Counted from the stretch's first letter, positions 5,943-22,689 are shown. The stretch: DNA of 34,157 nt from an uncultured bacterium (GCA_903831305.1 CAIKXE010000011.1:76002-110158), one strand, 5' to 3'. A program made the numbers and translations. The notes: generated by a model from the letters alone, not told the origin.

Positions 5943-5983
5943 AGTATTTACATTATCATTTTAGAGCCCAAATTACCACTTTC

Positions 5984-6019
5984 CACAAAGGCCTAGCCTT
6001 CAAAGGCTAGGCCTTTGTG
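5984..6019. repeat. Perfect 17-bp inverted repeat in divergent tsaD/Nudix intergenic region
   Basis: CACAAAGGCCTAGCCTT-CA-AAGGCTAGGCCTTTGTG. Confidence 0.9.
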
Positions 6020-6044
6020 TGGTGGTGGAAGTGAAGGCTAGATA

Positions 6045-6566
6045 GTGCTACTATTAGATTCTATGACAGAGAGTATTACGGAAAACTATCGGGGGAGAAG
6101 CGGGGTGGATTATATTTTTGAATATTTTGATGCTGATTCCTTTGCAGATCTAGATTATTCAAAGTGTCAGCAAGTTTATGGCGTTTGCCTATATGAAAAT
6201 AAAATGGTTATCGGTTTTGGTGGTAAGAAGAAAGATTGGGGTTTGATTGGTGGTACTATTGAAAATGGAGAAACTTTTGAACAGACTTTAAAAAGAGAAA
6301 TTCAGGAAGAATCAAATATGGAGGTTCTAAAGTGTCTACCGGTTGGTTATCAAAAAATGACGGATACTAGGGACGGCAGTTATGTTTATCAGCTACGGTA
6401 TGCCTGTTTGGTCCGCCCTTATGGACCGTTCATCGCTGACCCGGCTGGAGGAATTATGGAGATAAAGCTTATTGACCCTAAGGATTATAAAAAATATTTT
6501 AATTGGGGAAAAATCGGCGAGCGGATAATCACTCGGGGTCTAGAATTATTAGAAGGTTTAAAATAA
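6045..6566 (+). CDS. Nudix hydrolase family protein
   Basis: Nudix box GGTIENGETFEQTLKREIQEESN; start could be the Met at 6063. Confidence 0.85.
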   Translation: MLLLDSMTESITENYRGRSGVDYIFEYFDADSFADLDYSKCQQVYGVCLYENKMVIGFGGKKKDWGLIGGTIENGETFEQTLKREIQEESNMEVLKCLPVGYQKMTDTRDGSYVYQLRYACLVRPYGPFIADPAGGIMEIKLIDPKDYKKYFNWGKIGERIITRGLELLEGLK

Positions 6567-6570
6567 AAAA

Positions 6571-7164
6571 ATGAAAACTGAAATTGAGGCGAAGTTTTTA
6601 AACATTGACCAAGAGAAGTTAAGAGCCAGATTAAAGGAAATCGGGGCGGTGATGAAGTACCCAGAGCGATTGATGAAAAGGAAGGTGTATGATTATCCGG
6701 ATGCTCGGTTAAAAAAGATCGGCGCTTGGATCAGAGTGCGTGATGAAGGTGATGGGGTGATTACTCTGAGTTATAAACAGCTTTTGGACCGCTCACTGCA
6801 TGGTACTAAGGAAATCACGGTAGAAGTAAATGACTTTGAAACCATGTGTAATTTTCTTCAGGCTTGCGGTTTTGATAGCAAGTCATACCAAGAAACCAAG
6901 AGAGAAAAATGGGTACTCGGGGAGTCTGAGATAACTATTGATACTTGGCCTTGGATTCCGACATTTGCAGAAGTAGAATCAGGAACAGAAGAGGAAATAC
7001 ATAAGGTTTGTGATTTACTCAACCTTGATTGGGTTAAAGCTTTGCACGGCAGTGTGGAGACCGCATATCAAGATGTTTTTGATGTGACGGAAGATGATGT
7101 AAACGGTTGGGAAGAAATCACTTTTACCCCCGTACCGGACTGGCTGGAGATTAGGCGGAAATGA
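6571..7164 (+). CDS. CYTH domain protein (class IV adenylate cyclase/triphosphatase-like)
   Basis: N-terminal EIEAKF (ExExK), IRVRDEGDGVITLSYK, EITVEV, WPWIPTFAEVE pattern. Confidence 0.8.
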   Translation: MKTEIEAKFLNIDQEKLRARLKEIGAVMKYPERLMKRKVYDYPDARLKKIGAWIRVRDEGDGVITLSYKQLLDRSLHGTKEITVEVNDFETMCNFLQACGFDSKSYQETKREKWVLGESEITIDTWPWIPTFAEVESGTEEEIHKVCDLLNLDWVKALHGSVETAYQDVFDVTEDDVNGWEEITFTPVPDWLEIRRK

Positions 7165-7170
7165 TGATAT

Positions 7171-7176
7171 TATAAT
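7171..7176 (+). promoter_or_regulatory. -10 box (TATAAT) 6 nt upstream of ABC transporter ATG
   Basis: TATAAT-acccct-ATG. Confidence 0.5.
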
Positions 7177-7182
7177 ACCCCT

Positions 7183-8958
7183 ATGAAAACAGGAAAAAAT
7201 ATTAAAATTAGCCAAATATTCAAGCAATTTTGGCTGGGAGCTAAACCTAGGCGAGGGGCTTTTTTCTTGGCGTATTTTCTGTACTTTATTGCCAGTGTTA
7301 TTAATATTATTGTACCACTTTATTATAAAAAGTTTTTTGATTTACTGGGTCAAACTGGGGATAAACATTTATTGATTTTTGGTCTCACAAAAATCATCAT
7401 TATTATTGCCCTTTTACATTTCGTAATGTGGGTATTCTGGCGAACAGCTGATTTTACTTCTTCTTTTATGATGTCAAAAACTCTTGCTAGATTAAAGCAA
7501 AACTGTTTTGATTATATGTTTAAACATTCATATGGTTTTTTTACAAATAATTTTACTGGTTCTCTGGTTCAACGGGTAAATCGTTTTACTCGAGCTTTTG
7601 AAATATTAAGCAATAGCATCGTATATCAGATCATACCGCTTATCGTCACTATTTTTGGTTCAATAATTGTCACTTATTTTATTGCTCCTGTCGTTTCCTT
7701 TCTCCTTATTGGTTGGATAATAATATTCATTATTTTCACGATTTTTATTTCTCAGTGGAAATTAAAATATGATGTTATTGTGGCCGAATCAGATTCAAAG
7801 ACCACCGGTTATTTATCTGATAGTATTACAAATAGTAATACTGTTTCTTTATTTACTAGTCTTGATTATGAGTCCAAGGCTTTTAAGGATGTAACTGATA
7901 ATCAAGCAAATAAAACCAGGTTTTCATGGTATCTTAGTGATATCATTGATGCCGTCCAAGGGTTTTTGATTGTGGCGGTTGAATTTTGTATTTTTTATTA
8001 CACATTGAAATATTGGGAGCAAGGTCTGGCCACCATCGGTACTTTTGTGTTAGCCCAAACTTACATAATTGGTTTAGCTAATCAACTTTGGAATTTGAAT
8101 AAGGTCGTCAGGACAATCTATCAAGGTATTGCTGATGCCAAGGAAATGGTGGAAATTTTGGAGATGCCTTATGAGATTAAAGACGTGATTGGAGCAAAAA
8201 ATTTGGTGGTAAATAAGGGAGAAATTATTTTCAAAGATGTCAGTTTTAATTTTGATGAAAGTCGTGAAGTTTTGGTTAATATAAATATCAATATAAAACC
8301 TGGGGAGAAGATTGGTCTCGTTGGACCATCAGGCGCTGGTAAGACCACTTTTGTCCGTTTGATCATGCGTTTATATGAATTGACAAAAGGGAAGATAGAA
8401 ATTGATGGTCAGAATATTCAGTTGGTTGGGCAAGATAGTCTTAGGAAAAATATCAGTCTGGTCCCTCAAGATCCAGTTTTATTTCACCGGACGTTGCTGG
8501 AAAATATTCGTTATGGGAGGCGCGGAGCCACGGATGAAGAAGTGAAGGAGGCGGCCAGACTGGCTCATTGTGATGAATTTATAGATACTCTTCCGTTAAA
8601 ATATGAAACTTTTGTGGGAGAGCGAGGTATAAAATTGTCTGGTGGTGAACGTCAGCGGGTGGCTATTGCGAGGGCTATTTTAAAACACGCTCCAATTTTG
8701 ATTCTGGATGAGGCTACCTCCAGCCTAGATTCTCATTCGGAAAAATTAATTCAGGACGCTTTGGATCATCTTATGAAAGATTGCACCACTATCGTCATTG
8801 CTCATCGTCTGTCTACTATTCGTAAAATGGATCGAATTATTGCTATGAATGGTGGTAAAATTGTAGAAGATGGGACACATGATGAACTGGCAAATAAAAA
8901 TAGCGGTCTGTATAAGGATCTCTGGGAACTCCAAGCCGGCGGTTTTATTCAGAAGTAA
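7183..8958 (+). CDS. ABC transporter, fused transmembrane and ATPase domains
   Basis: N-terminal 6-TM region; Walker A GPSGAGKTT, signature LSGGERQRVAIARAI, Walker B ILILDEATSSLD, H-loop IAHRLST. Confidence 0.95.
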   Translation: MKTGKNIKISQIFKQFWLGAKPRRGAFFLAYFLYFIASVINIIVPLYYKKFFDLLGQTGDKHLLIFGLTKIIIIIALLHFVMWVFWRTADFTSSFMMSKTLARLKQNCFDYMFKHSYGFFTNNFTGSLVQRVNRFTRAFEILSNSIVYQIIPLIVTIFGSIIVTYFIAPVVSFLLIGWIIIFIIFTIFISQWKLKYDVIVAESDSKTTGYLSDSITNSNTVSLFTSLDYESKAFKDVTDNQANKTRFSWYLSDIIDAVQGFLIVAVEFCIFYYTLKYWEQGLATIGTFVLAQTYIIGLANQLWNLNKVVRTIYQGIADAKEMVEILEMPYEIKDVIGAKNLVVNKGEIIFKDVSFNFDESREVLVNININIKPGEKIGLVGPSGAGKTTFVRLIMRLYELTKGKIEIDGQNIQLVGQDSLRKNISLVPQDPVLFHRTLLENIRYGRRGATDEEVKEAARLAHCDEFIDTLPLKYETFVGERGIKLSGGERQRVAIARAILKHAPILILDEATSSLDSHSEKLIQDALDHLMKDCTTIVIAHRLSTIRKMDRIIAMNGGKIVEDGTHDELANKNSGLYKDLWELQAGGFIQK

Positions 8959-9032
8959 TTTGGTTTGTGGGGAATCTGTGTTAACTTAAAGAAGCATTAC
9001 CAGTGTATTTTACCTAAGATCTCTCTAATATA

Positions 9033-9671
9033 ATGAAAACAGCGAAATTAAAAATAATTTACAGCGAAGAATTTGATATTCAAAGGGTTAAAAAGACCTT
9101 AAGTAAAATTGATTGGTTTATAGAAAATAAATATAATTATAAAAAGTTTCCTTTACCAAAAGCTCTGGATAAGGAAAAACTTCAGAGTTATTCCGAGAGT
9201 GACATAAAAGAGGCTGTCAGAGCTGAATATACTGATGTTTTGTATAAAGAGTGTGAAAAGACTTTAATTGATAATTGGGCAAAAGTTTTTGGTGAATTGG
9301 AGCAGGCTTTTGTAAAAAGTGGTCTGTCTTGCCGAGATAAATACATAATTTACCTGACAAAATATGGGACTGGTGGAAGTTATAATTTACCAAACACTGT
9401 AGTCATAAATATTGTTTCTTCGGCGAGAGAAAGAGTTTTGTCGGTGATAATTCATGAGATAGTTCATCTGGCTATAGAGAAACAGATAGTTAAATATAAA
9501 ATCACGCAATGGCAGAAAGAGGTGATTGTTGACAGCTTTCTAAACAAAGTCTATCCTGGTATGTTAAAACAGCAAAATTATCCTTTTGATATGTCTGAGA
9601 CACAAAAAATATTTGAAAAGTATTATCCGGATGCAGAGTTGATTATGAGTAATATATCTAAATTAGAGTAA
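9033..9671 (+). CDS. Hypothetical protein, putative zincin metalloprotease (HEIVH)
   Basis: 212 aa, SVIIHEIVHLAIE zinc-binding HExxH motif; no obvious signal peptide. Confidence 0.6.
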   Translation: MKTAKLKIIYSEEFDIQRVKKTLSKIDWFIENKYNYKKFPLPKALDKEKLQSYSESDIKEAVRAEYTDVLYKECEKTLIDNWAKVFGELEQAFVKSGLSCRDKYIIYLTKYGTGGSYNLPNTVVINIVSSARERVLSVIIHEIVHLAIEKQIVKYKITQWQKEVIVDSFLNKVYPGMLKQQNYPFDMSETQKIFEKYYPDAELIMSNISKLE

Positions 9672-9688
9672 TAAATCTTTTTTGAAAA

Positions 9689-10354
9689 ATGATTAAAATT
9701 TCATTAAATAAAGAACTGGATTATGAAGTGTACCAGGATTTTAATAATTTTTTTGTGGCCGGAGCGGATTTTGGTGGGGGAATTAAGAAAGATCATCCAG
9801 GCATAAGTTTGGAAAATTACAAAAAATACATTGATGATTTTTATATTGCCAACCAAGATGAGATGACAGAGAACCTGGATCTGGTGAATAATCTGATATC
9901 GGAGAAGCAGGATAAGTTTTACTCAGCTTTAAAAGATATTTTTCATATGGATTTTAATGCGGACCCTTACCAAGGCTATCTCTCTATTTTTAATTGTAAC
10001 CCCCGCTGGCCGGAGACCAAGACTTTTCAAATATTTTACAAGAAAGATTTATCACATATGTTGGAGGTTGCCTGTCACGAATCTCTTCATTTTGCTTTTT
10101 TTGACTATTTGGACAAAAATTTTACGTCCCAAATTAATGGCTTAAGTAAAAACTCTGGTGTTTTATGGGAATTATCTGAAATCTTAAACGTCATCATTTT
10201 AAACCTACCTCCGTTCAATGAAATCCTAGGTATGGAAGAATTATTATTCTATCCAGAATTACAACCAAAACTTGATAAAGCTAAAGAGATTTGGAATGAA
10301 TGCGGTGGCAATATTAAGGAGCTTATTAATATGTATCTGGAGGATATAAAATAG
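9689..10354 (+). CDS. Hypothetical protein with HESLH motif, putative zinc metalloprotease-like
   Basis: 221 aa, MLEVACHESLHFAFFDYL. Confidence 0.5.
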   Translation: MIKISLNKELDYEVYQDFNNFFVAGADFGGGIKKDHPGISLENYKKYIDDFYIANQDEMTENLDLVNNLISEKQDKFYSALKDIFHMDFNADPYQGYLSIFNCNPRWPETKTFQIFYKKDLSHMLEVACHESLHFAFFDYLDKNFTSQINGLSKNSGVLWELSEILNVIILNLPPFNEILGMEELLFYPELQPKLDKAKEIWNECGGNIKELINMYLEDIK

Positions 10355-10404
10355 CTAATTTTGGGCACAGCTGGATTTTTTGGGGGGATTTGGGGTATAG
10401 TTAC

Positions 10405-10450
10405 CTTATGAATTTAGACGATATATACACCCCGCTTGAGGAGGCAAAAG
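10405..10450 (+). repeat. Left copy of imperfect direct repeat flanking the six-gene operon
   Basis: TTATGAATTTAGACGATATATACACCCCGCTTGAGGAGGCAAAA matches 17581-17624 at 40/44 positions. Confidence 0.75.
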
Positions 10451-10515
10451 AGGAGATTCAGAGGCGCTGGGAGGATAAAGAATTGAAGAAAAAGGTAGAA
10501 GAATATTTAGGCTAA
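10408..10515 (+). CDS. Short 35-aa ORF MNLDDIYTPLEEAKEEIQRRWEDKELKKKVEEYLG
   Basis: ATG at 10408, TAA at 10513-10515; TATAGT box 6 nt upstream; start duplicated at 17583. May be a remnant of a longer gene. Confidence 0.45.
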   Translation: MNLDDIYTPLEEAKEEIQRRWEDKELKKKVEEYLG

Positions 10516-10621
10516 AAAAGTATGGTGGCTGACCCCTTTATAAATGTGGGGTGGTGCGATATTAAATTGAATGTGCCAATTGTGTGTTGGACAAGACTGC
10601 CACTTTACTTTTTAGTATCTT

Positions 10622-10651
10622 TTGATACAATCAGGTTGTTAGTTTTATTAT
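10622..10651 (+). promoter_or_regulatory. Candidate sigma70-type promoter for the six-gene operon
   Basis: TTGATA (10622-10627), 18-nt spacer, TATTAT (10646-10651), ATG at 10671. Confidence 0.4.
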
Positions 10652-10670
10652 AAGTAAAAGCATAAAAAGC

Positions 10671-12386
10671 ATGGAAAATAATAATAATTTGCCCTTGAAT
10701 GAACAAGAGAGTCTTAAAGAATTAACGCCTGAGCAAAAAAGTAATCGTCAATTAGCCGAGCGTCTTTTCCCAGAAGATTTACCAAGTATTGAGTCTCTAC
10801 TTACTCGATATCCTGATAGGGAGTTACCAAAAGGGGCCATGGTTACTAGAATCGCTCCAAGTCCAACTGGTTTTATGCATATTGGTGGTATGTATATGGC
10901 ACTGATATCATGTCGTTTAGCCCATCAAACAAATGGTGTTTATTATTTACGAATTGAAGATACCGATCAAAAGAGAGAGGTCGAAGGTGCCCGTAAAGTA
11001 GTGACTGATTCTCTACATAAATTTGGTTTAGATCCAGATGAAGGAGAGGGTATTAATGGTGTTGAAAAAGGTGCATATGGTCCCTATCGACAGTCTGAAA
11101 GGAAAGATATCTATAAATCTTTCATTAAACATCTTGTGGAAATTGGCAGAGCCTACCCTTGTTTTTGTAGTGAAGAAGAACTTGAAGCAACACATAAAAA
11201 ACAGGAAGAACTTAATGTTAAATCTGGTTACTATGGAGTTTGGGCCAAGTATAGAAATGCGGATCCAAATATTGTTGAGGAGATGCTAAATCAAGGCAAA
11301 CCTTATATTATAAGATTTAAATCGCTTGGTAGTAATGAAAATAAAATTGTTTATAATGACTTGTTGAAAGGTCAAATTGAGTTACCCGAGAATGATCTTG
11401 ATTTGGTAATTCTTAAATCAGATGGATTACCAACTTATCATTTCGCCCACGTAATTGACGATCATTTAATGGGAACTACTCACGTGTTACGTGGCGATGA
11501 ATGGTTATCTTCAATTCCCTTACATCGTGAACTATTCAAAGCTTTTGAATTCAAATGTCCTGAGTATGCTCATATCGCTCCTATTAATAAGATTGACGAG
11601 TCTGGGGGTAAAAGAAAACTCTCTAAAAGAAAGGATCCAGAAGCCAACATTTCTTTTTTTGGAGAGAATGGATATCCAGAAGTTGCTGTTGTTGAATATC
11701 TGATGAACCTTGCAAATTCGAATTTTGAAGATTGGAGAAAGGCTAATCCTGACAAGTTGTATACCGAATTCCAACTAGCTCTTAAAAAGCTTCCAGATAG
11801 TGCCGGTCCCCTGTTTGACAGGGTTAAATTAAATGATATAGCTAAGGAAAAAATAGCTGGGATGAAGGCAGAGGATTTGTATGCAAAAGTGTTAGATTGG
11901 TCTTCAAAATACGATCCTGATTTTAAGGAAATTTTAGAAAAAGACCCCGAGTATTGGATTAAGGTTTTTTCAATTGATCGTGGAGGAAACAAATCACGAA
12001 AAGACATTACTATGTGGTCTGAAGTCAAAGAAATTTCCGCTTTTTTTAATAAAGATAGGTTTATCGAGCCAGACTGGTCTAGTTTTACAAGTAAACTCAA
12101 TACAGACGAGATAAAAAGTATTATCAGTCAATATGATCTAGTATTTTCTTTAGATGACTCGTCAGACAAGTGGATGGAAAAGATTAAACAAATCGCTGTA
12201 AATTTTGGATTTGCTCCAGATACAAAAACATATAAGAAAAATAAGGAGAGTTTTAGAGGTCACGTCGGAGAAGTAGCTCAAATTATAAGATTTGCGATTA
12301 CTGGGCGAACCCAGACTCCAGATTTATACCAAATTATGCAAGTTTTAGGAGAGGAAGAATGTAGAAAAAGACTTACCTTAATCTAA
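10671..12386 (+). CDS. gltX: Glutamyl-tRNA synthetase, long form with N-terminal extension
   Basis: HIGH region RIAPSPTGFMHIGGMYMAL, RIEDTDQKREVEGA, DGLPTYHFAHVIDDHLMGTTHVLRGDEWLSS, KMSKS variant GGKRKLSKRKDPEAN, C-terminal FAITGRTQTPDLYQIMQVLGEEECRKRL. Confidence 0.93.
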   Translation: MENNNNLPLNEQESLKELTPEQKSNRQLAERLFPEDLPSIESLLTRYPDRELPKGAMVTRIAPSPTGFMHIGGMYMALISCRLAHQTNGVYYLRIEDTDQKREVEGARKVVTDSLHKFGLDPDEGEGINGVEKGAYGPYRQSERKDIYKSFIKHLVEIGRAYPCFCSEEELEATHKKQEELNVKSGYYGVWAKYRNADPNIVEEMLNQGKPYIIRFKSLGSNENKIVYNDLLKGQIELPENDLDLVILKSDGLPTYHFAHVIDDHLMGTTHVLRGDEWLSSIPLHRELFKAFEFKCPEYAHIAPINKIDESGGKRKLSKRKDPEANISFFGENGYPEVAVVEYLMNLANSNFEDWRKANPDKLYTEFQLALKKLPDSAGPLFDRVKLNDIAKEKIAGMKAEDLYAKVLDWSSKYDPDFKEILEKDPEYWIKVFSIDRGGNKSRKDITMWSEVKEISAFFNKDRFIEPDWSSFTSKLNTDEIKSIISQYDLVFSLDDSSDKWMEKIKQIAVNFGFAPDTKTYKKNKESFRGHVGEVAQIIRFAITGRTQTPDLYQIMQVLGEEECRKRLTLI

Positions 12387-13144
12387 TGAGTAAAATACCC
12401 ATTTTTGCAATAATAACTGATTTTGGTTTTGATTTTGCTGTCGCTTCAATGAAAGGACTTATTTTACGTAATCATCCTGATGCAAAAATTATTGACATTG
12501 AACACAGTATTGAACATTTTTCTATTCTGAGTGCTGCGTTTGTGATTCAGAAAGTGTACAAATATTTTCCAAACGATACTATTTTTATTTGTGTTGTGGA
12601 CCCTGGAGTTGGAACAGATAGAGGGCTTATTTGTATAGAAACTGATTGTTATAAGTTTGTTGGGCCAAATAATGGTATATTTCACTACATTCTTGATAAT
12701 CTAAAGGCGGAGGATAAGGTCTATAAAATTAATAATCATTTCATTAATTCGCACTCAAATACTTTCCACGGCAGAGATATATTAACACCCTCAGCAATTG
12801 AATTAGCAAAAGGGAACAGAACTTTTTTAAGTCTTGGTAATAAGGCTGATATGGTTAAATTAGCTTTACTGGTAAGCGGTGCTTTTGTCGTCTTATATAT
12901 AGATGGGTTTGGAAATATCAAGACCAATATTCCAATAGACTCCATCAAGTCAGATTTATTTAATATTTGTATCAATGGCAAAAATAATCCTATTAAATTT
13001 GTCAAAACCTTTGGTGAAGTGAGTGAAGGCGAATTACTTTGTTATAAAGGGAGTAATGATACCTTGGAGATTGCTGTTAATCTAGGTTCTGCCAAGAAAG
13101 TTTTAAATTTAAACGTTGGTGATATTTTAAAAATTAATAATTAG
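12386..13144 (+). CDS. SAM hydroxide adenosyltransferase/SAM hydrolase (DUF62) family protein
   Basis: IITDFGFDFAVASMKGLI, AAFVIQKVYKYFPNDTIFICVVDPGVGTDRG, FVGPNNGIF, TFHGRDILTPSAIELA; start codon overlaps the gltX stop. Confidence 0.88.
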   Translation: MSKIPIFAIITDFGFDFAVASMKGLILRNHPDAKIIDIEHSIEHFSILSAAFVIQKVYKYFPNDTIFICVVDPGVGTDRGLICIETDCYKFVGPNNGIFHYILDNLKAEDKVYKINNHFINSHSNTFHGRDILTPSAIELAKGNRTFLSLGNKADMVKLALLVSGAFVVLYIDGFGNIKTNIPIDSIKSDLFNICINGKNNPIKFVKTFGEVSEGELLCYKGSNDTLEIAVNLGSAKKVLNLNVGDILKINN

Positions 13145-13146
13145 AT

Positions 13147-14070
13147 ATGACACCTCAAGCCATTACTTTAAATTTTCCTCTAAATTTTGCAATCTTACTA
13201 AAACTAAATAGCGAAGTGTTATTTGGAAAGAGAGAAGAGTTACTTTTACGGGCATATGTTCCGGGGATAAAAATCAAGAAGGAGTCTATAAAAAGAGATG
13301 GTAAGCCAGATCTAATAATAGATTATCGTTTCAGTAAAGAGCAGAAAATTCTATATAAAAAGAAAGGTATCGTTATTATGGATAATTGGTCTGCTGGGGT
13401 TCCTGTGTATTTTTTCCACCTCATTTATAGTATAAGCCATCAGTTATTGCTTAATAAAGGCCACTACGCGATGCACTCAGTGTGTGTGGGTAAAAAAAAT
13501 CAGTGGTCGCTATTGTTAGGTCATACAGGAGTAGGTAAGAGTTCGTCCATGATTAAACTTTTAAGTAATTATGGGTTCAAACTCTTCTCAAGTAATAAAA
13601 CCTTAGTAAATTTTTCTAGTAGTTCTAGGTTAGTGGCAAGCGCTGGTACTCAAACGGTTACTTATAAGAATAGTGACAAAAAAAATCTAGAAAGTTTAAC
13701 AGAGCAAGGAGTTGGTTTTGTCGACAGGGCTGCCTGTGAATTATTTGGTAAATTTTTAGCCACGAATAAAAAAGTCAAGATAAACTCAGTCTATCTCATA
13801 AGATTAAATCCGGCGGTTAAGGAATTTGTTAAATTAAATGAAATTGAATCTTTGGTTGCTTTATTCCCTTTTTTCTTTGATCATATTAATTCTGATATAA
13901 TCCTTTTTGGTGGTAAAGATTTATATAATGGTGGAACGGTAGTTGCGGATATAAAGAAAAAAGTCCTAAGGTCTCTTAAAAAGTCTCTAAAATATCTAAA
14001 TGTTTATACCTTAAATGGGTCTCTTGATTTCGTCTGTAAGATAATTAATGAACACCATGAAGATAAATAA
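13147..14070 (+). CDS. HPr kinase/phosphorylase-like P-loop protein
   Basis: HYAMHSVCVGKKNQWSLLLGHTGVGKSSSMIKLLSNYGFKLFSSNKTLV resembles the HprK C-terminal kinase fold with Walker A GHTGVGKSS. Confidence 0.6.
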   Translation: MTPQAITLNFPLNFAILLKLNSEVLFGKREELLLRAYVPGIKIKKESIKRDGKPDLIIDYRFSKEQKILYKKKGIVIMDNWSAGVPVYFFHLIYSISHQLLLNKGHYAMHSVCVGKKNQWSLLLGHTGVGKSSSMIKLLSNYGFKLFSSNKTLVNFSSSSRLVASAGTQTVTYKNSDKKNLESLTEQGVGFVDRAACELFGKFLATNKKVKINSVYLIRLNPAVKEFVKLNEIESLVALFPFFFDHINSDIILFGGKDLYNGGTVVADIKKKVLRSLKKSLKYLNVYTLNGSLDFVCKIINEHHEDK

Positions 14071-15193
14071 ATTAATTTTTGGCGTGTGTGGAATAGGTCG
14101 TGGCCATATTTACCGACAGTTACCCTTAATCTCTCATTTTGCACATAATTCTAGGATTGTAATTTTTGCCTTTGGAGAGAGCTTTGTGTTTTTTAAGTCC
14201 TATTTTAAAAATAATACTAATATTAAAGTAATATTAGTAGCTGTTCCGTGGATACACGGCGGACCGGTTGGTATTAATTATATAAAAACGGCCAATGAAA
14301 AGTCTAATAAAGGGGTTAATTTTACTTTACAAAATTTTTCAGCTATGGACCAAGCCTACAAGTTTCTTTCTGGTAAACCAGATTTGGTAGTTTCAGATTA
14401 TGAACCGATATCCGCGCAGTATTCCTATTCATTGAATGTTCCACTTGTAACAATTGATCAGCAAAGTAAGTATTTTTATGATGGTTATCCTACTCAGTTA
14501 GGTAACCTTGGATTTATAGAAGAAAGGGCTAGGCTAAGTTTGTTTTTTCCAAAGGCAGAGATGAGAATTGCGTGTTCCTTTTTTAAACCACCAAGCGATA
14601 AAATAACATACGGCGGTTTTGAAGTAAAACTTGTACCAGTTATGATTCGTGATGAAATAACTAAACTAAAGACTAACAATCAAGAGATATCTAAAAATGT
14701 GCTTATCTACCTATCACCATATAGTTCCTTTGTCCAAGATGCAAAAAAAGTTATAGAAATTTTATTTAAGTTTTCAGATTATTCTTTTCATTTATATGTT
14801 TCAAAGAAATCCGATTTTTCAAAAATAAAAAAACAGTTACCAAAAAATATTAAAATAAGTTTTCATGGGGATAAAGGATTCTCCAGGATTCTAAGTTTGT
14901 CAAGTTCCGTTATCTGTACTGCGGGGCACATGTTTCTTTCGGAGATGATGTTTCTTGGTAAGCCAGTATATGCTATCCCTCTTCAGACGTATGAACAAAA
15001 ATATAACGCTAAGATTATCGAGGACAATGGATTTGGTATTATGCGTCCCCAAATAGATTCTAATTCTTTGGGTAAATTTCTGGCAAGTATTATAAAATTT
15101 AAACACAATATTATATCTGACAAAAAAGTCCTTTTAAATGAAGGATCTGGACAGGCACAAATTGTTAATTTACTTAAAAAAATGTTAAAATAA
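14048..15193 (+). CDS. Glycosyltransferase, MJ1255/MurG-like (GT-B fold)
   Basis: Gly-rich GVCGIGRGHIYRQLPL N-terminus, DLVVSDYEPISAQYSYSLNVPLVTIDQQ, C-terminal CTAGHMFLSEMMFLGKPVYAIPLQTYEQKYNAKIIEDNGFG. Start could be 14054. Confidence 0.75.
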   Translation: MNTMKINKLIFGVCGIGRGHIYRQLPLISHFAHNSRIVIFAFGESFVFFKSYFKNNTNIKVILVAVPWIHGGPVGINYIKTANEKSNKGVNFTLQNFSAMDQAYKFLSGKPDLVVSDYEPISAQYSYSLNVPLVTIDQQSKYFYDGYPTQLGNLGFIEERARLSLFFPKAEMRIACSFFKPPSDKITYGGFEVKLVPVMIRDEITKLKTNNQEISKNVLIYLSPYSSFVQDAKKVIEILFKFSDYSFHLYVSKKSDFSKIKKQLPKNIKISFHGDKGFSRILSLSSSVICTAGHMFLSEMMFLGKPVYAIPLQTYEQKYNAKIIEDNGFGIMRPQIDSNSLGKFLASIIKFKHNIISDKKVLLNEGSGQAQIVNLLKKMLK

Positions 15194-15197
15194 TAAG

Positions 15198-15785
15198 ATG
15201 GATATTAAATTACCAAATAAAAATGTTTATATATTAATTGGCGGTGGTTGTCATGCTGGACGCCATAAAGATAGGCTCGTTACTGAAATTGAGAGTTGGT
15301 TGTCATATAAACAAATTAAAATCGCCAAGATTGTGTTTATACCATTTGCAAAAAATAAGATTGATTGGAATATGACAGTGCAAAAATATTTGAATTCTTT
15401 TTTACATAAATTGCATAAAAACAATAGGTTATCAATATCTATCGCAATTCCCAATAAAAAAACACTTAAAAATCAATTGTCTAATGCCGACATTATTTTT
15501 TTCAGTGGTGGTAGCGAACTTAATCTAAAAGCACTTTTTAAGAAGGAAACACTCCCCATAGCGGAGAAAATATTTATTGGTATTTCGGCTGGGGTAAATT
15601 TTTTGTCAAAGTTTTATTTTTCGAATGATAGAGGAAGAATAGAGACCGGTTTAGGAGTTCTGCCGATTAGCACAATTTGTCATTTTTCGACTGAAAAAAA
15701 TAATAAAGCCAAATTATTATCAGAAGGGAGAAAATACCCGGTTATTCCAATCGAGGATAATAAGTTTGTCACAATAATTTTTTGA
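15198..15785 (+). CDS. Peptidase S51 (dipeptidase E/cyanophycinase)-like protein
   Basis: NVYILIGGG, ADIIFFSGGSELNLKAL, nucleophile-like FIGISAGVNFLSK, short terminal IPIEDNKFVTI. Confidence 0.65.
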   Translation: MDIKLPNKNVYILIGGGCHAGRHKDRLVTEIESWLSYKQIKIAKIVFIPFAKNKIDWNMTVQKYLNSFLHKLHKNNRLSISIAIPNKKTLKNQLSNADIIFFSGGSELNLKALFKKETLPIAEKIFIGISAGVNFLSKFYFSNDRGRIETGLGVLPISTICHFSTEKNNKAKLLSEGRKYPVIPIEDNKFVTIIF

Positions 15786-15794
15786 TTAAATTTT

Positions 15795-17177
15795 ATGGAA
15801 AAACCACCAACTGAAAAGTTTACAACACCAGAAGATGATAACAAAAAGCTCGTTTTTAGAGTGGGGATGTCACCAACAGAATCGAATAAAAAAATTGGAC
15901 CGATTAGATCTCATCTGTATAATTATGCTTTTGCAAAAGGGGAAGCAGCTAAGGGTAAGGACTCGACAGTCATTTTTAGAGTAGATGACACAGACAAAGA
16001 AAAACATACTAAAGAAAAAGCTAAAGAGATCTATCTATTTTTCACTGAAACATTGGGTTTTGAATTTGATGTAACCCCAGATAATTCACAAGAAAAGATA
16101 GGGCAGTCCGTGTTTCAATCAGAACGACAAGATGTCTACTCTAAATATCTCGATGAATTATTTGATAAACAAGTCGCTTTTTTGGATAAAGAATCCGGTC
16201 TTGTTCTATTCGATATAAAAAAATTTATTGAACAATATTCCGATTCACTTGAAATTGAAGACCTTCTTAGAGGGAAAATAAAATTAAAATTAGAAGAAAA
16301 CTTGAGAAGGGGCCAGTTATTTTTTCCATTAGTGAGATCAGATAAAAGTGTTTTATATCATCTGTCCTCAGTAATAGACGATGCGACATTTGGAGTTACT
16401 CATGTAGTAAGGGGACAAGATAAACTTCCCGTGACTGATTTTCAAGAGATGGTGCGTGTTAGTTTGGGACTTGAACCAAAAAAATACCTGCATACCCCAA
16501 TGCTTCTTGGACAAGGGGGTGAATTATTAAAAGGTGTGGTTAAGTTTGATGATTTTATAAGGAAAGGAATAGTACCGCATGCTCTAATTTCTTACATGAT
16601 ATCTTCTGGATATGGTAATCCCGAAGCAATTTATTCATCATTAGATGAATTTATTAAAGATTTTGATTATAAAAAAATTCATAAGAATAATGGACAGTTT
16701 GATTCAAATAAATTAGACGATATTAATAAAAAAATAATAAGAAAGGTTTCACCAGAGGTTTACTTCAGTTCTATATTATTATATTTATCAAAGAATGGTG
16801 AAGACCAATTTTCCGAGTTTTTAAAAGATCAAGAACTAAAAAGCATTTTAATATCATTACGTCGAAATCCTGAGGAGAGCTATGAAATGCTCAAGACGAT
16901 CTTTAACCCTCAATATGAGAAAATAGACACGGAGATGTCGGACGTAGTAAAAATATTACTTGAAGCACTGGATAAATCCACTGATAGTATCCCAACTCCA
17001 GAGTCATTGGGGTTAGAAAAAAAAGAACTATTTAACGGTCTAAGATGGATACTTGTTGGTAGGTCTATCTTTCCAAACATAGATCAGATCTTCAACTACT
17101 TGTCTCATAAGGGATTTTTACGTTCAAGAATTAAGTTGACTAAGCAATCTTTGTCTAGAAATATTTCGAACCCGTAA
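15795..17177 (+). CDS. Glutamyl-tRNA synthetase paralog lacking canonical HIGH and KMSKS motifs
   Basis: RVGMSPTESNKKIGPIRSHLYNYAFAKGEAA...FRVDDTDKEKHT, DKSVLYHLSSVIDDATFGVTHVVRGQDKL, MLLGQGGELLKGVVKFDDFIRKGIVPHALISYMISSGYG aligns with GluRS but the HIGH and KLSKR positions are substituted. Confidence 0.8.
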   Translation: MEKPPTEKFTTPEDDNKKLVFRVGMSPTESNKKIGPIRSHLYNYAFAKGEAAKGKDSTVIFRVDDTDKEKHTKEKAKEIYLFFTETLGFEFDVTPDNSQEKIGQSVFQSERQDVYSKYLDELFDKQVAFLDKESGLVLFDIKKFIEQYSDSLEIEDLLRGKIKLKLEENLRRGQLFFPLVRSDKSVLYHLSSVIDDATFGVTHVVRGQDKLPVTDFQEMVRVSLGLEPKKYLHTPMLLGQGGELLKGVVKFDDFIRKGIVPHALISYMISSGYGNPEAIYSSLDEFIKDFDYKKIHKNNGQFDSNKLDDINKKIIRKVSPEVYFSSILLYLSKNGEDQFSEFLKDQELKSILISLRRNPEESYEMLKTIFNPQYEKIDTEMSDVVKILLEALDKSTDSIPTPESLGLEKKELFNGLRWILVGRSIFPNIDQIFNYLSHKGFLRSRIKLTKQSLSRNISNP

Positions 17178-17454
17178 AGAACTTTATATTATCTAAGGTC
17201 GGACAGTTTATAAATTAATTTATAATAATAGTATTTTTTAATCCCTAAATTACACCCAAATCATATCATATCTTTCTGTTAATTTTTTGAAATAATTTCT
17301 GTCTTTCGATGAAGACTTTTTGGGCCGATTCTAAGTGGGTCATTTTTTTCTTTTCGATACCAGTGATTCTTTGGTTACATTTTCTTTCAAATATTCTTCA
17401 CATGAGGGAAGTGAAAGCAGTTTCTGTATCTGGGTCATATAGGTTTCATAAGAC

Positions 17455-17473
17455 AAAGGTGTCAGGAACCTTT
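17455..17473. repeat. Short palindromic motif (REP-like)
   Basis: AAAGGT-GTCAGGA-ACCTTT. Confidence 0.45.
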
Positions 17474-17516
17474 TGTTTTCGAATTAAATTTTAGGTTGGT
17501 TTTAAATTAGAATATT

Positions 17517-17531
17517 GGGGTCAGTCACCAT
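17517..17531. repeat. GGGGTCAGTCACCAT motif, inverted relative to 10522-10536
   Basis: Reverse complement ATGGTGACTGACCCC matches ATGGTGGCTGACCCC at 14/15. Confidence 0.55.
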
Positions 17532-17569
17532 TATTTTAAATTCAATTTGGGGTTTTAAGCAAAAAGGTA

Positions 17570-17575
17570 TATAAT
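17570..17575 (+). promoter_or_regulatory. -10 box (TATAAT) 7 nt upstream of truncated MNLDGIYTPLEE ORF
   Basis: TATAAT-atcagtt-ATG. Confidence 0.45.
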
Positions 17576-17582
17576 ATCAGTT

Positions 17583-17627
17583 ATGAATTTAGACGGCATA
17601 TACACCCCACTTGAGGAGGTAAAAAAC
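17583..17627 (+). pseudogene. Truncated copy of the MNLD-IYTPLEE ORF start
   Basis: MNLDGIYTPLEEVK then unrelated sequence; homology to 10408-10452 ends about 15 bp before the ATP-grasp stop codon. Confidence 0.55.
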
Positions 17628-17641
17628 TGCCCACTCTGTTT

Positions 17642-18943
17642 TTATCTTATATACCCCCATTTTTTTAGATCTGGAATTTTATTTTCAATATCTTTACCAA
17701 TATCGTTTCTATAAAAGGCTTTTGGTATAATTATCTTTTTTATTATATTTAGACTCTTTAGTCTAGCTTTTTCTATTGTATCAGCGACTGCTGTTGTATA
17801 CGCAATATAGCCATCTCGGCCCGAAATAAAGTACTGCCCGTTATCTTTGCCAGCTCTTATTGAGATACTTTCAAAGTGTATACTTTCAAGTTCTTTAATA
17901 TCTAATTTATCAAAATAAATATTGACCCCATAGAGAGTTTCCTTACTGTTATCTCTTCCAAAAGGAAAAGGTGGTGTCGCGATTAGATTTACTATACCAA
18001 AACCTTTTTTAAACTTTAAATCATATTTTTCACCGTTAGCAATTGCATATAAAAATTCGCCCCAAGGAGAAATATTTAATTCGCTCTGTAGGTGAACAAT
18101 AGGGGTACCCATCCGAGCAGTTACTTCAAGTGGATATGCACCACTTTCATTCACAATGCAGTTTATTTCAAAATCTCCCTTAAAATTTACTGATTGTAAA
18201 TAAGATTTGAATTTACTTAGAACATCAATAAACAATTTATTTTTTTCATCACCATCATACCAAGCCAATGTACCCATTTCACTAGTAATTGGACCCACAT
18301 CATCAGGGAACATTCTTGTGTGTTCAAAGTTTATTTCTATTGGCCCTACCCAGTCAATGCCATTAAAATATCTACCAACACCTATTTCAACTCCGTTAAT
18401 CCTCTCGTGCAGAGTGATTTTTTCTCGATTAATATATTTATTATTGTAATAACTTTTTAAAACACTAATTGTGTCTTTGCCACATTCGTACTCGCCAATG
18501 TAAGTCAGAAACTTTCTACTGTGGTCATTACACTTAATTACCCATTTTTTGGGATTATCTTTTATGAATAAAATTGCATCTTCAATATCCGTAAAATCTT
18601 TTAAATCAACTGTTTTTAAACCTAACTCCTTAAACATCTTTTGTCCATATTCTCGGTCTTGTTCCAGTCTGTCTGCTTCTTTGGAACCACCAAAGACTTT
18701 ATAGCCTTTTTTCCTGAGAAAATCTTGGGTCTTTCCGTAGCCTACATCATCAAAAACTATCAAACCATTTTTACCAACCCACTCGAGCTCTTTTTTCCAG
18801 GAATACGTTTTTTCAACTAAATTATCAAAGTTTTGGCGGTCATTTTTGTTTTTAATGTAAAGCTTAACATTATGGCCTTCTTTTCTTAGTATAACAGCCA
18901 GGTTTCCAGCGATGCACTCATTTGATATAAACAATATATTCAT
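17642..18943 (-). CDS. ATP-grasp, PurD-like (phosphoribosylamine-glycine ligase-like) protein
   Basis: MNILFISNECIAGNLAVILRKEGHNVKLYI; KWVIKCNDHSRK; LHERINGVEIGVGRYFNG; FEINCIVNESGAYPLEVTARMGTP. ORF track start 18952; MNIL at 18943 preferred. Confidence 0.75.
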   Translation of the reverse strand: MNILFISNECIAGNLAVILRKEGHNVKLYIKNKNDRQNFDNLVEKTYSWKKELEWVGKNGLIVFDDVGYGKTQDFLRKKGYKVFGGSKEADRLEQDREYGQKMFKELGLKTVDLKDFTDIEDAILFIKDNPKKWVIKCNDHSRKFLTYIGEYECGKDTISVLKSYYNNKYINREKITLHERINGVEIGVGRYFNGIDWVGPIEINFEHTRMFPDDVGPITSEMGTLAWYDGDEKNKLFIDVLSKFKSYLQSVNFKGDFEINCIVNESGAYPLEVTARMGTPIVHLQSELNISPWGEFLYAIANGEKYDLKFKKGFGIVNLIATPPFPFGRDNSKETLYGVNIYFDKLDIKELESIHFESISIRAGKDNGQYFISGRDGYIAYTTAVADTIEKARLKSLNIIKKIIIPKAFYRNDIGKDIENKIPDLKKWGYIR

Positions 18944-19008
18944 GATTATCAAAGTATAATATAAAAAAGCTTTTAAAACAATAAAAAGTGGTATATAATA
19001 GCCACACT

Positions 19009-19926
19009 ATGACATGGTTTTTAATTGCCCTAATAGGGCCAGTATTATACGCCCTAACAAACTTTATTGATAAACTTCTGCTGGAGAAGTATTTTAAAAA
19101 TGGTGGGGTTGGGACACTTGTGCTTATTTCTTCACTTATTTCGGTTTTTGTTTTACCCTTTATTTTTTTAGCAGATAATACTGTTTTTTCTGTTGGCTAT
19201 ATCCAGATTCTTACTTTGGCGGTGGTGGGAATATTAAACGTAGTGGTGATTTGGTGTTATTTATTAGCACTTAGAGACGAAGAAGCTTCTATTGTGGTTG
19301 TCTTTTACCAGCTTGTTCCGGTCTTTGGTTCAATTTTAGGTTATTTTATTCTAGGTGAAATATTGTCACAAATACAATTGATAGCAATGGCAATAATCAT
19401 TTTTGGCACCACCATTATCTCATTCGAAATTGATGCGGAAAATAAATTTAAACTTCGTCGTCAGACCGTTCCTTTAATGCTAGTAGCGGCTTTAGCCTGG
19501 GCACTAGAATCTGTCTTGTTTAAGGTGGTGGCTCTGGAGGAAAATCTTTGGCGTTCGCTTTTTTGGGAACATCTCATGATGACCATTGTTGGACTGCTTA
19601 TTTTTATGTTTATTCGCTCCTATCGTGAAAATTTCTTATCAGCCATACGTGAAAATTCTAAAAGAATATTGTCGCTTAATGTTTTAAATGAGATTTTGTA
19701 TATTAGCGGAAATATTGTTGTTGCCTTTGCTTATTTACTTGCCCCCATTGGTCTGGTCTTGCTCACTGAGTCATTTCAGCCTATTTTTGTATTTATGCTT
19801 GGTATATTTTTTACTTTCTTTTTTCCAAAGGTTGCTACCGAAAAGATCTATGCCAAACATATTTTGCAAAAAGTGATTGCTATCTGTATAACTGGTCTTG
19901 GTACCTATTTGCTTCTCGTTTATTGA
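19009..19926 (+). CDS. EamA/DMT-family transporter-like membrane protein
   Basis: About 10 TM segments in two halves; YFILGEILSQIQLIAMAIIIFGTTIIS. Start moved from 18988 to 19009, since TATAAT at 18994-18999 lies inside the longer ORF. Confidence 0.8.
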   Translation: MTWFLIALIGPVLYALTNFIDKLLLEKYFKNGGVGTLVLISSLISVFVLPFIFLADNTVFSVGYIQILTLAVVGILNVVVIWCYLLALRDEEASIVVVFYQLVPVFGSILGYFILGEILSQIQLIAMAIIIFGTTIISFEIDAENKFKLRRQTVPLMLVAALAWALESVLFKVVALEENLWRSLFWEHLMMTIVGLLIFMFIRSYRENFLSAIRENSKRILSLNVLNEILYISGNIVVAFAYLLAPIGLVLLTESFQPIFVFMLGIFFTFFFPKVATEKIYAKHILQKVIAICITGLGTYLLLVY

Positions 19927-19965
19927 TGTTTTTGCATTATTTTGTATTAATTATATAATAACTAT

Positions 19966-20505
19966 ATGAGAAAGAACCAACAAAAGTTTTCATGGATGAA
20001 CCAGAATTTAGAGGTTAAGGATACAAAAAAATATGGTAAGGGTGTTTTTGCGAAGAAGGATATTAAAAAAGGAGAAACACTGTTTGTGATGGGTGGTTAT
20101 ATTCTAACTATCGATGACGAAAATAAATTAAAAGGGATCGTGGCTGATAAACCTATTGAAATATCTAATCAATTTTCTATTGGTCCTCGAACAGCTTTTG
20201 ACCTTAAAAAAATGCCTCAGCACTATGTTAATCATGGTTGTAATCCTAACGCTGGTTTTAAAGGACAAATATTTATGCTAGCAATGAAGAAAATAAGAAA
20301 AGACGAGGAAATTTGTTATGATTATGCGATGGTGATGAATTCTAGTCCTAATAGTAATTCTTACTTTACTTTTGATTGCAAGTGTGGAGCAAAAAATTGT
20401 CGGAAAAAGATCACCGAGGATGATTGGAAGATAAAAGGATTACAAAAAAGATATAACGGATATTTTCAGTGGTTTTTACAAAATAAAATTTTGCAAGAGA
20501 TTTAA
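19966..20505 (+). CDS. SET domain protein with post-SET cysteine motif
   Basis: YGKGVFAKKDIKKGE, YVNHGCNPNAGF, KDEEICYDYA, CKCGAKNCRKKI; TATAAT 6 nt upstream of ATG. Confidence 0.85.
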   Translation: MRKNQQKFSWMNQNLEVKDTKKYGKGVFAKKDIKKGETLFVMGGYILTIDDENKLKGIVADKPIEISNQFSIGPRTAFDLKKMPQHYVNHGCNPNAGFKGQIFMLAMKKIRKDEEICYDYAMVMNSSPNSNSYFTFDCKCGAKNCRKKITEDDWKIKGLQKRYNGYFQWFLQNKILQEI

Positions 20506-20533
20506 TTAGATAATATGTGCTATAATAGAAAAC

Positions 20534-20956
20534 ATGGTATTTAATATTAATTTTCGAGAATATTTTTTCTACTATTTTCTTTTAGTGATTATTATAATCA
20601 CCGGTGCCTTTTCCTATTATCGTTTCGTTGTTCAGCATGATTACATTGTATATTATGAAGGTGAATGCGACCCGAACGTGCAAAGTTGTTTTGTTGGTTG
20701 TGAGGATGATGAATGTATTAATGAATATTATTATTTAGAAGTACAAAAATACGCGTCAGATCTACTTAAGGTGTGTGGTAACTATATTACTGATTGTGCT
20801 GAGGCAAACATATGCTTACCTACGGATCAAGAGTGTACTATTACTTACTGCGACCCAGAAATTGACGATGTTGATTGTGCTGTGTCTACACCAGACCAAG
20901 AGGCTAGTCTTTCTTCTGATGCAGATGTTTTATTAGAGGAAGATAATATAGAATAA
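20534..20956 (+). CDS. Membrane-anchored cysteine-rich hypothetical protein
   Basis: One N-terminal TM segment followed by a domain with about 10 Cys (CDPNVQSCFVGCEDDEC...CGNYITDCAEANICLPTDQECTITYCDPEIDDVDC) and an acidic tail. Confidence 0.6.
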   Translation: MVFNINFREYFFYYFLLVIIIITGAFSYYRFVVQHDYIVYYEGECDPNVQSCFVGCEDDECINEYYYLEVQKYASDLLKVCGNYITDCAEANICLPTDQECTITYCDPEIDDVDCAVSTPDQEASLSSDADVLLEEDNIE

Positions 20957-20960
20957 AATT

Positions 20961-22676
20961 ATGATTTGTCCATTTTTTGATTTTCCAACTTATCTTTTTT
21001 TCACAGCTGATGTCCCACCTTTACTATATTATTCACATATCCCCTCGATCATCATTTCTCTTTTTGTGGGAATTTTTGTCTTTTTAAACGGTAAACGGTC
21101 TCTGCTTAATCAGCTTTTATTGGGAATAGCAGTATTCTTCTCACTTTGGACAATAATTAATCTTTTCACCTGGACTAATATTAATAGCGATAGCGTATCG
21201 TTTTTTTGGTCACTTTTAGGTTTATGTTTAAGTCTAGTCGCTATCTTATCTATATATTTTATCTACGTGTTTTTAGAAAAAAAAGATATCTCACTTCGTG
21301 TAAAAATAATATTCTTGGTTTTATTGGCCCCTGTTTTCCTACTATCCGCCACCCGTTATAATTTAAGCGGTTTTGATTTAATGGAATGCGACGCTTTTAA
21401 ATTTGAGAACATATTATTTTATAGTTACTATTATTCGCTTGGTTTAATAGCAATGGTATGGATTTTTGTACTACTTGTCAGACACTATCGTGTGGCCACT
21501 ATTAATTTTCGGAAGGAAATAATCCTAATCGGTATAGGAATAGAGTCTTTTTTGTTTATGTTTTTCATCCTGTCGTACATTGGAAGTTATTTAACTACCA
21601 CTGGTGTTTTAGCAGATTCTCGTATTGAAATGTACGGACTTTTTGGCATGACATTCTTCATTTCTTTGATTTCTTATCTGATTGTAAAATTTAAAGCTTT
21701 TAATATTAAATTAATCGGAACACAGGCTCTGGTGTGGGGTCTGGTGATTACTATCGGTTCAGAGTTCTTTTTTGTTGAAACTGGTATTAACAAAATATTA
21801 ACTGGTGTTACATTATTCATTTCCTCTATTGCTGGTGTTATGATTGTCCGGGGTGTCAAAAAGGAAATTAAGCAGAAAGAGAGAATCGAAAGTTTGGCTG
21901 ATAGCTTGAGAAGTTTGAATGACCGGCTGGAGGTTACTAACTCTTCTTTGGAGATCGCCAATGAAAGGCTCAAGGAGCTAGACCATATGAAGTCTGAGTT
22001 TGTATCCCTCGCTACACACCAGATTCGTGGGCCACTTTCCGCTATCAAGGGCTATGTGTCCTTGATGATTGAGGGGGATTATGGCAAGCCACCAGCTACC
22101 TTTGTGGAGCCTTTGGACACCGTTTTTAAATCCACGGATTCCTTGAGTAAGATGGTGACGGACTTCCTGGATGTGTCCCGTATTGACCTGGGTCAGATGA
22201 AATATGAATTTACAGATTTTGATTTTAGGGATTTGGTGGAGGAGGTGTCCAAGGAACTGAAAATAAGTGTAGAGAGTAAAGGCCTGGAGTTTAAGGAAAA
22301 GATTGCTCATGGTAAGTGTCCGGTGAAAGCTGATAGGACAAAATTAAAACAGGTGCTGATAAATTTGATTGATAACTCTAGTAAATATACAGAAAAGGGT
22401 TGGCTGGAAGTTTCAGTGGAAAAATTAAAGGAAGGGAATAAGATATTGTTTGCGGTGAAGGATAGTGGGGTGGGTATTTCCAAGGCCACGCTCCCGGTCC
22501 TCTTCCAGAGATTCTCCCGAGCCAAAGACGCCAACAAGACTAATATATTAGGAACTGGTTTAGGTCTCTATATTGCCAAGAAAATGGTAGAAGCTAATCA
22601 AGGTAAAATATGGGCCGAGTCCGCAGGGGAAGGTAAAGGGGCGGAGTTTTATGTGGAGCTAAATTTGGTGGAATAA
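20961..22676 (+). CDS. Membrane sensor histidine kinase (7TM-like N-terminus)
   Basis: Multiple N-terminal TM helices, coiled-coil, H-box SLATHQIRGPLSAIKGY, N-box LINLIDNSSKYTEKG, G boxes DSGVGI and GTGLGLYIAKKMVEANQGKIW. Confidence 0.9.
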   Translation: MICPFFDFPTYLFFTADVPPLLYYSHIPSIIISLFVGIFVFLNGKRSLLNQLLLGIAVFFSLWTIINLFTWTNINSDSVSFFWSLLGLCLSLVAILSIYFIYVFLEKKDISLRVKIIFLVLLAPVFLLSATRYNLSGFDLMECDAFKFENILFYSYYYSLGLIAMVWIFVLLVRHYRVATINFRKEIILIGIGIESFLFMFFILSYIGSYLTTTGVLADSRIEMYGLFGMTFFISLISYLIVKFKAFNIKLIGTQALVWGLVITIGSEFFFVETGINKILTGVTLFISSIAGVMIVRGVKKEIKQKERIESLADSLRSLNDRLEVTNSSLEIANERLKELDHMKSEFVSLATHQIRGPLSAIKGYVSLMIEGDYGKPPATFVEPLDTVFKSTDSLSKMVTDFLDVSRIDLGQMKYEFTDFDFRDLVEEVSKELKISVESKGLEFKEKIAHGKCPVKADRTKLKQVLINLIDNSSKYTEKGWLEVSVEKLKEGNKILFAVKDSGVGISKATLPVLFQRFSRAKDANKTNILGTGLGLYIAKKMVEANQGKIWAESAGEGKGAEFYVELNLVE

Positions 22677-22689
22677 ATGATTTCCTATG

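What the first reader, a model, noticed from the sequence alone, without database searches (positions are those of the whole stretch)
10671..17177. Six-gene operon pairing an active and a motif-less GluRS with SAM-cleaving, HPrK-like, glycosyltransferase and S51-like proteins
Seen: six same-strand genes with 1-bp or 23-bp overlaps or gaps of 2-9 bp, implying one transcript. Known families: GluRS, DUF62 SAM hydroxide adenosyltransferase/hydrolase, HPr-kinase-like, MJ1255/MurG-like GT, peptidase S51. I know of no described pathway that combines these. Inference: a specialised pathway using Glu, Glu-AMP or Glu-tRNA to make or modify a small molecule, peptide or glycan, with the degenerate GluRS as a transferase or carrier-like partner. 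This is the best candidate for an undescribed system in the window.
Basis: partly seen in the sequence, partly recalled or inferred. Interest (0 to 1): 0.85.

Follow-up and report, generated by a model that had tools for sequence, protein, structure and literature searches.

The report
Hybrid operon with motif-less GluRS family
Six tightly packed genes on a DNA island of a tiny bacterium combine two separately conserved gene modules, one of them built around an altered tRNA-charging enzyme that has lost its ATP-using motifs, and they probably make an unknown glutamate-carrying small molecule.

Summary
The six ORFs are real, same-strand and tightly packed. The six together are not a conserved pathway: no other locus found carries them all. 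They lie on an ~18 kb low-GC island missing from a congeneric genome. Two parts are conserved elsewhere.

(1) HPrK-like kinase + GT-B glycosyltransferase: adjacent or fused in 28 of 31 GT-family loci from Patescibacteria to Chlamydiae, Endozoicomonas and an archaeon. They usually sit beside a third protein resembling cytosylglucuronate (nucleobase sugar) synthase (22/31) and a PhyH-type dioxygenase (14/31); the window lacks both.

(2) Motif-less GluRS + S51-like hydrolase: two other families of the class hold true GluRS-B orthologues (100/100 clade, purifying selection, all without HIGH/KMSKS). Each shares an operon with an S51-like gene, a SAM synthetase and a sulfatase-superfamily gene. The window has a SAM hydrolase instead.

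GluRS-A is a third GluRS with intact motifs; the 15 other genomes checked have one each. Best reading: a glutamyl-tRNA-dependent specialised pathway, with GluRS-A supplying or protecting Glu-tRNA, GluRS-B transferring Glu and S51 removing it. This is the logic of AcmD/AcmF/AcmE in ascamycin. The composition is shown; the chemistry is inferred.

The parts
10671..12386 (+). GluRS-A: extra, complete GluRS (571 aa, N-terminal extension) with intact HIGH-type and KMSKS-type motifs
   Evidence: 47-53% identity to the sole GluRS of G054, G073 and G128
12386..13144 (+). DUF62 SAM hydroxide adenosyltransferase / SAM hydrolase
   Evidence: aligned to PH0463 with VVDPGVGT.R and TFHGRD motifs kept; absent from 15 relative and comparison genomes
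13147..14070 (+). HPrK/PEPCK-superfamily kinase-like protein, first gene of the conserved kinase-GT pair
   Evidence: (P-loop GHTGVGKSS, conserved His before it)
14048..15193 (+). MJ1255/Glyco_trans_1_3 GT-B glycosyltransferase, second gene of the pair
15198..15785 (+). S51-like hydrolase (GISAG nucleophile motif), conserved operon partner of the motif-less GluRS
   Evidence: same family beside GluRS-B in G712 and G571, hhalign probability 96.9, E 1.4e-10
15795..17177 (+). GluRS-B: GluRS-derived protein lacking HIGH and KMSKS, anticodon-like C-terminal region kept
   Evidence: clade with G712 and G571 proteins 100/100; dN below dS
5962..24336 (.). Genomic island holding the operon, between tsaD and tRNA-Glu/tRNA-Ser; about 2.4 kb in congeneric G001
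   Evidence: island GC 0.344 against 0.40-0.43 in the flanks
10622..10651 (+). Promoter-like site upstream of the operon (TTGATA-18-TATTAT); consensus match only
   Evidence: number of such sites not above shuffles

Best explanation
The operon is a horizontally acquired hybrid of two independently conserved modules plus an extra GluRS, and it probably makes a glutamylated nucleoside- or sugar-type small molecule. Shown: the gene order; the island; the conserved HPrK-GT pair; the conserved motif-less GluRS/S51/SAM-enzyme association; three GluRS-type genes where the checked relatives have one. Inferred: (1) DUF62 supplies an adenosine (or adenosyl-derived) unit from SAM. (2) The HPrK-like kinase and the GT build a phosphorylated or glycosylated scaffold. 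(3) GluRS-A charges tRNA-Glu and, as a divergent extra copy, may tolerate the product. (4) GluRS-B can no longer make Glu-AMP but still binds Glu-tRNA and transfers the glutamyl group to the scaffold. (5) The S51-like hydrolase removes it again for maturation or self-protection.
For: GluRS-B is a selected family, not decay: full-length orthologues in two other families, 100/100 clade, dN 0.42-0.84 against saturated or ~2 dS, the same loss of HIGH and KMSKS and a shared new K...R-x-H-L / DDT pattern. All three GluRS-B loci carry an S51-like gene and a SAM enzyme in the same operon. GluRS-A is extra and motif-complete. The HPrK-GT pair is linked by adjacency and fusion in 28/31 loci and usually sits with a protein matching CGA_synthase TIGR04467 at E 1e-17 to 3e-7; some loci add DUF84 NTPase domains. 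Published precedent with the same logic: AcmD (extra AlaRS, resistant, supplies Ala-tRNA), AcmF (AlaRS-like, lacks most ATP-binding residues, transfers Ala from Ala-tRNA to a nucleoside), AcmE (hydrolase), with acmG sulfatase listed next to acmF (PMC12945691; PMC4257720). G712 and G571 also have a sulfatase-superfamily gene next to GluRS-B.
Against: No substrate or product is known. The window lacks the CGA-synthase-like and PhyH partners, and no hit to the former exists elsewhere in the genome. No other locus joins the two modules, so their shared operon may be chance stacking on an island. GluRS-A kin in other genomes are the sole, presumably housekeeping, GluRS. CGA-synthase scores are far below that family's cut-off. 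GluRS-B has only three known members. S51 proteins of the window and of G712/G571 share only about 25% identity. Retention of tRNA binding is inferred from the C-terminal alignment only.
Confidence: 0.4

Rival explanations
1. Chance stacking: unrelated accessory genes share a transcript on an island. The kinase-GT pair makes its own glycan or phospho-sugar, GluRS-A is a redundant acquired GluRS, and the S51/GluRS-B/DUF62 genes do something unrelated.
For: The island is absent from G001. Modules 1 and 2 never occur together elsewhere. GluRS-A kin stand alone.
Against: Intergenic distances of -23 to +9 bp across all six genes. A SAM enzyme and S51 accompany GluRS-B in all three lineages. Two GluRS-type genes frame one operon in a genome whose relatives have a single GluRS.
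Confidence: 0.3
2. GluRS-B is a regulatory or decoy pseudoenzyme (HisZ-like): it binds Glu, tRNA-Glu or a GluRS inhibitor and protects or tunes GluRS, and GluRS-A is a resistant copy, so the operon is mainly immunity against a glutamyl-adenylate mimic made by others, with S51 destroying the mimic.
For: Extra GluRS plus an acyl-hydrolase-type gene resembles aaRS-targeted resistance (AcmD self-resistance). GluRS-B lacks ATP motifs but keeps Arg/Ser/Tyr positions around the Glu pocket.
Against: In G712 and G571 GluRS-B sits with a SAM synthetase and a sulfatase-superfamily enzyme, which look biosynthetic rather than immune. No PADLOC match. Kinase and GT are unexplained, unless they inactivate the mimic.
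Confidence: 0.2
3. GluRS-B still activates a carboxylate by an altered site and ligates it to a non-tRNA acceptor (MshC- or GluQRS-like), without using Glu-tRNA.
For: A conserved, remodelled catalytic domain across the family; other aaRS paralogues do this (PMC9437257).
Against: HIGH and KMSKS are lost in all three members. GluQRS and MshC, from general knowledge, keep their ATP-binding motifs. The anticodon-like C-terminal region is kept.
Confidence: 0.1

Closest known systems
AcmD/AcmF/AcmE of the ascamycin cluster (PMC12945691, PMC4257720)
   Same: An extra active aaRS, an aaRS-like partner without ATP-binding residues and a hydrolase encoded together; sulfatase gene beside the aaRS-like gene, as in G712/G571
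   Different: Ascamycin uses AlaRS (class II); here GluRS (class I). No sulfamate-forming genes seen; different hydrolase fold; Patescibacteria
SbzA, IleRS-like transferase of SB-203208 (PMC12945691)
   Same: Class I aaRS-derived protein working as an aa-tRNA-dependent transferase with the overall aaRS architecture kept
   Different: SbzA keeps HYGH and AMSKA motifs and weak charging activity; GluRS-B has lost both motifs
Cyclodipeptide synthases
   Same: Class I aaRS-like proteins that take aminoacyl-tRNA as substrate (motif loss from general knowledge)
   Different: Small TyrRS/TrpRS-like catalytic domain without an anticodon domain; GluRS-B is a full-length GluRS derivative
CGA synthase family TIGR04467 (blasticidin S / mildiomycin)
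   Same: Matches the third protein of the HPrK-GT cassette
   Different: Scores 30-65 bits against a cut-off of 300; the partner is absent from the window genome
HPr kinase / HprK-related kinases (TIGR04352, TIGR04355)
   Same: PEPCK/HPrK fold, P-loop, His upstream of it
   Different: Below every family cut-off; catalytic DD of HPrK (from general knowledge) replaced by GN/GD; no HPr context

Membership tests
Catalytic glutamyl-tRNA synthetase (GluRS-A) | HIGH and KMSKS motifs, TIGR00464 above cut-off, anticodon domain | tested here: met
Catalytic glutamyl-tRNA synthetase (GluRS-B) | HIGH and KMSKS motifs | tested here: not met
   KIGP and no KMSKS in the window; both absent in the two orthologues too; TIGR00464 172 bits, cut-off 290
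GluQRS (tRNA-Asp queuosine glutamylation) | Short GluRS catalytic domain without anticodon domain; family model over cut-off | tested here: not met
   GluRS-B is full length; best GluQRS model 82 bits, cut-off 277
aa-tRNA-dependent transferase (AcmF/SbzA-like function) | Transfers the aminoacyl group from aa-tRNA to a small molecule | not testable with these tools
   needs enzyme assays; analogy only
DUF62 SAM hydrolase | SAM_HAT N and C domains; Asp, Arg and His positions of the active site | tested here: met
Fluorinase/chlorinase | Fluorinase model over cut-off | tested here: not met
   33 bits against cut-off 400
HPr kinase/phosphorylase | Pfam/NCBIfam HPrK models over cut-off | tested here: not met
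HPrK/PEPCK fold superfamily | Fold | tested here: met
   (Foldseek E 6.5e-12 to PEPCK)
Peptidase S51 | Pfam model over cut-off, GxSAG nucleophile motif | tested here: met
   GISAG in the window, GSSAG/GASAG in the orthologues
Peptidase S51 | Complete Ser-Asp-His triad | tested here: inconclusive
   Ser and His aligned and conserved; Asp not identified
Conserved six-gene pathway as proposed | All six genes co-occur in other genomes | tested here: not met

The most novel reading that the evidence does not exclude
A previously undescribed, GluRS-derived family of ATP-independent glutamyl-tRNA-dependent transferases, with a dedicated S51 hydrolase and SAM enzyme, makes glutamyl-nucleoside natural products in Patescibacteria. 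In this genome it has been joined on one operon with part of a second undescribed, multi-phylum kinase-GT-nucleobase-transferase cassette.
Probability: 0.25. Interest if true: 0.9.

Novelty: new variant of a known kind. Interest (0 to 1): 0.72.

Why it matters
aaRS-derived enzymes that spend aminoacyl-tRNA on small molecules are known from Streptomyces, built on AlaRS, IleRS and others; none was found described for GluRS. A selected, motif-less GluRS family in ultra-small bacteria would extend that chemistry to a new lineage and a new aaRS, and gives a defined operon to test. The HPrK-GT cassette is a second open case: three or four proteins fused in many combinations and spread across distant phyla, often symbionts and intracellular bacteria.

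Tried and rejected
G006:C10 as another GluRS-B: it is CysRS. G128 HPrK hit: an unrelated kinase beside a GT4, no cassette. G001 hit of the CGA-synthase-like profile: a distant GT-B protein with no HPrK or MJ1255-type GT of the cassette beside it. Phage or plasmid origin: no match of the GT in phages or IMG/VR and none of the HPrK in plasmids; GluRS-B not in IMG/VR; plasmid hits of the G712 orthologue are all under 60% identity, and those listed are annotated gltX at about 24%. Defence system: no PADLOC match. Link between the cassette and extra GluRS: cassette genomes mostly have one or two PF00749 genes. att-site repeat at the island ends: no exact direct repeat of 14 bases or more.

Full report
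Observation. The six ORFs are present at the stated coordinates, on one strand, with overlaps of 1 and 23 bp and gaps of 2-9 bp. Their family assignments hold. The HPrK-like call, weak by sequence, is backed by a confident model (pLDDT 92) whose best structural matches are PEP carboxykinases, a fold shared with HPr kinase. Promoter- and terminator-like sites occur at chance frequency, so one transcript is an inference from spacing.

Genome setting. A housekeeping GluRS sits elsewhere next to murG. With Pfam PF00749, all 15 other genomes tested (11 of the same family, G054, G128, G073 and the distant G523) have one GluRS-type gene; this genome has three (the weak G006 extra is CysRS). DUF62 was found in none of those 15.

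The operon is on an island. In congeneric G001 the order ValRS-TsaD-tRNA-Glu-tRNA-Ser-M29 peptidase-hemerythrin-TrxR-FtsZ-FtsA-YbeY-LepB-Pth is kept, but the ~18.4 kb between TsaD and tRNA-Glu shrinks to ~2.4 kb. The island has GC 0.344 against 0.40-0.43 in the flanks. Other family members carry different content at that place.

Not a six-gene system. GluRS-A orthologues (47-53%) are the sole GluRS of G054, G128 and G073; in G054 and G073, whose neighbourhoods were read, they stand in unrelated contexts. The kinase-GT family and the GluRS-B family each occur without the rest.

Module 1, HPrK-GT. A scan of 85,488 species genomes with the GT alignment gave 30 close loci. 27 of these and G523 have the HPrK-like gene immediately upstream of, or fused to, the GT. 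Profile annotation of 31 loci found a third GT-B-like protein in 22 and a PhyH-type dioxygenase in 14. Fusions occur as HPrK-GT, GT-third, third-HPrK-GT, HPrK-GT-third and GT-UGT-DUF84, strong evidence that the proteins work together. The third protein matches the cytosylglucuronate synthase model at E 8.5e-18 to 2.8e-7, far below its cut-off, and its model is a GT-B fold. DUF84 NTPase genes or domains occur in three loci. This points, weakly, to nucleobase or nucleoside glycosylation. The window genome lacks the third protein, and no PhyH-type match is among the operon and neighbouring window proteins scanned.

Module 2, motif-less GluRS. In a phylum sample the best matches of GluRS-B were ordinary GluRS at 33-36% over part of the protein. 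A class sample of 392 genomes found two full-length relatives at E about 1e-59. Both lack HIGH and KMSKS and share with the window protein a DDT motif in place of EDT and a K...R-x-H-L pattern in place of HIGH...RTAL. With them GluRS-B forms a 100/100 clade. Amino-acid change is well below synonymous change, so these are selected proteins. In both genomes the operon is SAM synthetase (PF01941), motif-less GluRS, sulfatase-superfamily protein (PF00884), S51-like protein (PF03575). The window S51 aligns with theirs at probability 96.9. Thus S51 and a SAM-handling enzyme accompany GluRS-B in all three lineages, although the SAM enzymes differ (synthetase against hydrolase).

Mechanism. GluRS-B cannot make Glu-AMP by the usual route, since both ATP motifs are gone, but it keeps the Rossmann core and the anticodon-like C-terminal region. 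The published case with the same parts is ascamycin: AcmD, an extra AlaRS, charges tRNA and is more resistant to the product; AcmF, AlaRS-like and lacking most ATP-binding residues, transfers Ala from Ala-tRNA to a nucleoside; AcmE removes it. In that cluster acmG, a sulfatase, is listed next to acmF, and G712/G571 have a sulfatase-superfamily gene next to GluRS-B. By analogy GluRS-A would be the AcmD, GluRS-B the AcmF and S51 the AcmE of a glutamyl product whose scaffold is built by DUF62 (adenosine from SAM; hydrolysis to Met and adenosine is the known DUF62 reaction, PMC12120602), the kinase and the GT. Every step after gene content is inference.

Rivals. Chance stacking on an island cannot be excluded, because no second locus joins both modules. 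An immunity or decoy role for the two GluRS proteins is possible. An altered ligase is less likely given the motif losses.

Limits. GluRS-B has three known members. The 31-locus count comes from one scan whose patterns came from two sequences. Signal peptides were judged by eye. Many of the genomes are metagenome bins.

Noticed in passing
9033-9671 and 9689-10354 (+): Two tandem orphan ORFs just upstream of the operon, each with an HExxH motif (HEIVH, HESLH) but no Pfam or NCBIfam match over cut-off; possible metallopeptidases.
   Followed up: no
L059, L060, L062, L063, L069, L070: In chlamydial, TM6, Francisellaceae and gammaproteobacterial loci the cassette proteins (kinase-GT, CGA-synthase-like, PhyH) start with signal-peptide-like hydrophobic segments, unlike the patescibacterial ones (by eye). 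Export of enzymes that need nucleotides is unexplained.
   Followed up: partly
L174:7904-9199, L175:10753-12144: SAM synthetase of the PF01941 (archaeal-type) family in patescibacterial operons with the motif-less GluRS.
   Followed up: partly
17642-18952 (-): ATP-grasp protein resembling PurD but far below its cut-off, next to the operon on the opposite strand, with a divergent EamA transporter gene beside it.
   Followed up: no
5962-24336: The site between tsaD and tRNA-Glu/tRNA-Ser is variable in the family: different content in G001, G005, G007 and G008, so it is an insertion hotspot.
   Followed up: partly
L053:2296-3500, L051 and L068 fusions: DUF84 (inosine/xanthosine triphosphatase family) genes or domains attached to the kinase-GT cassette.
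   Followed up: partly
30790-32028 (-): 412-aa protein with only an HGTP_anticodon match in Pfam, conserved in G001 at 79%; possibly a HisRS-like paralogue.
   Followed up: no
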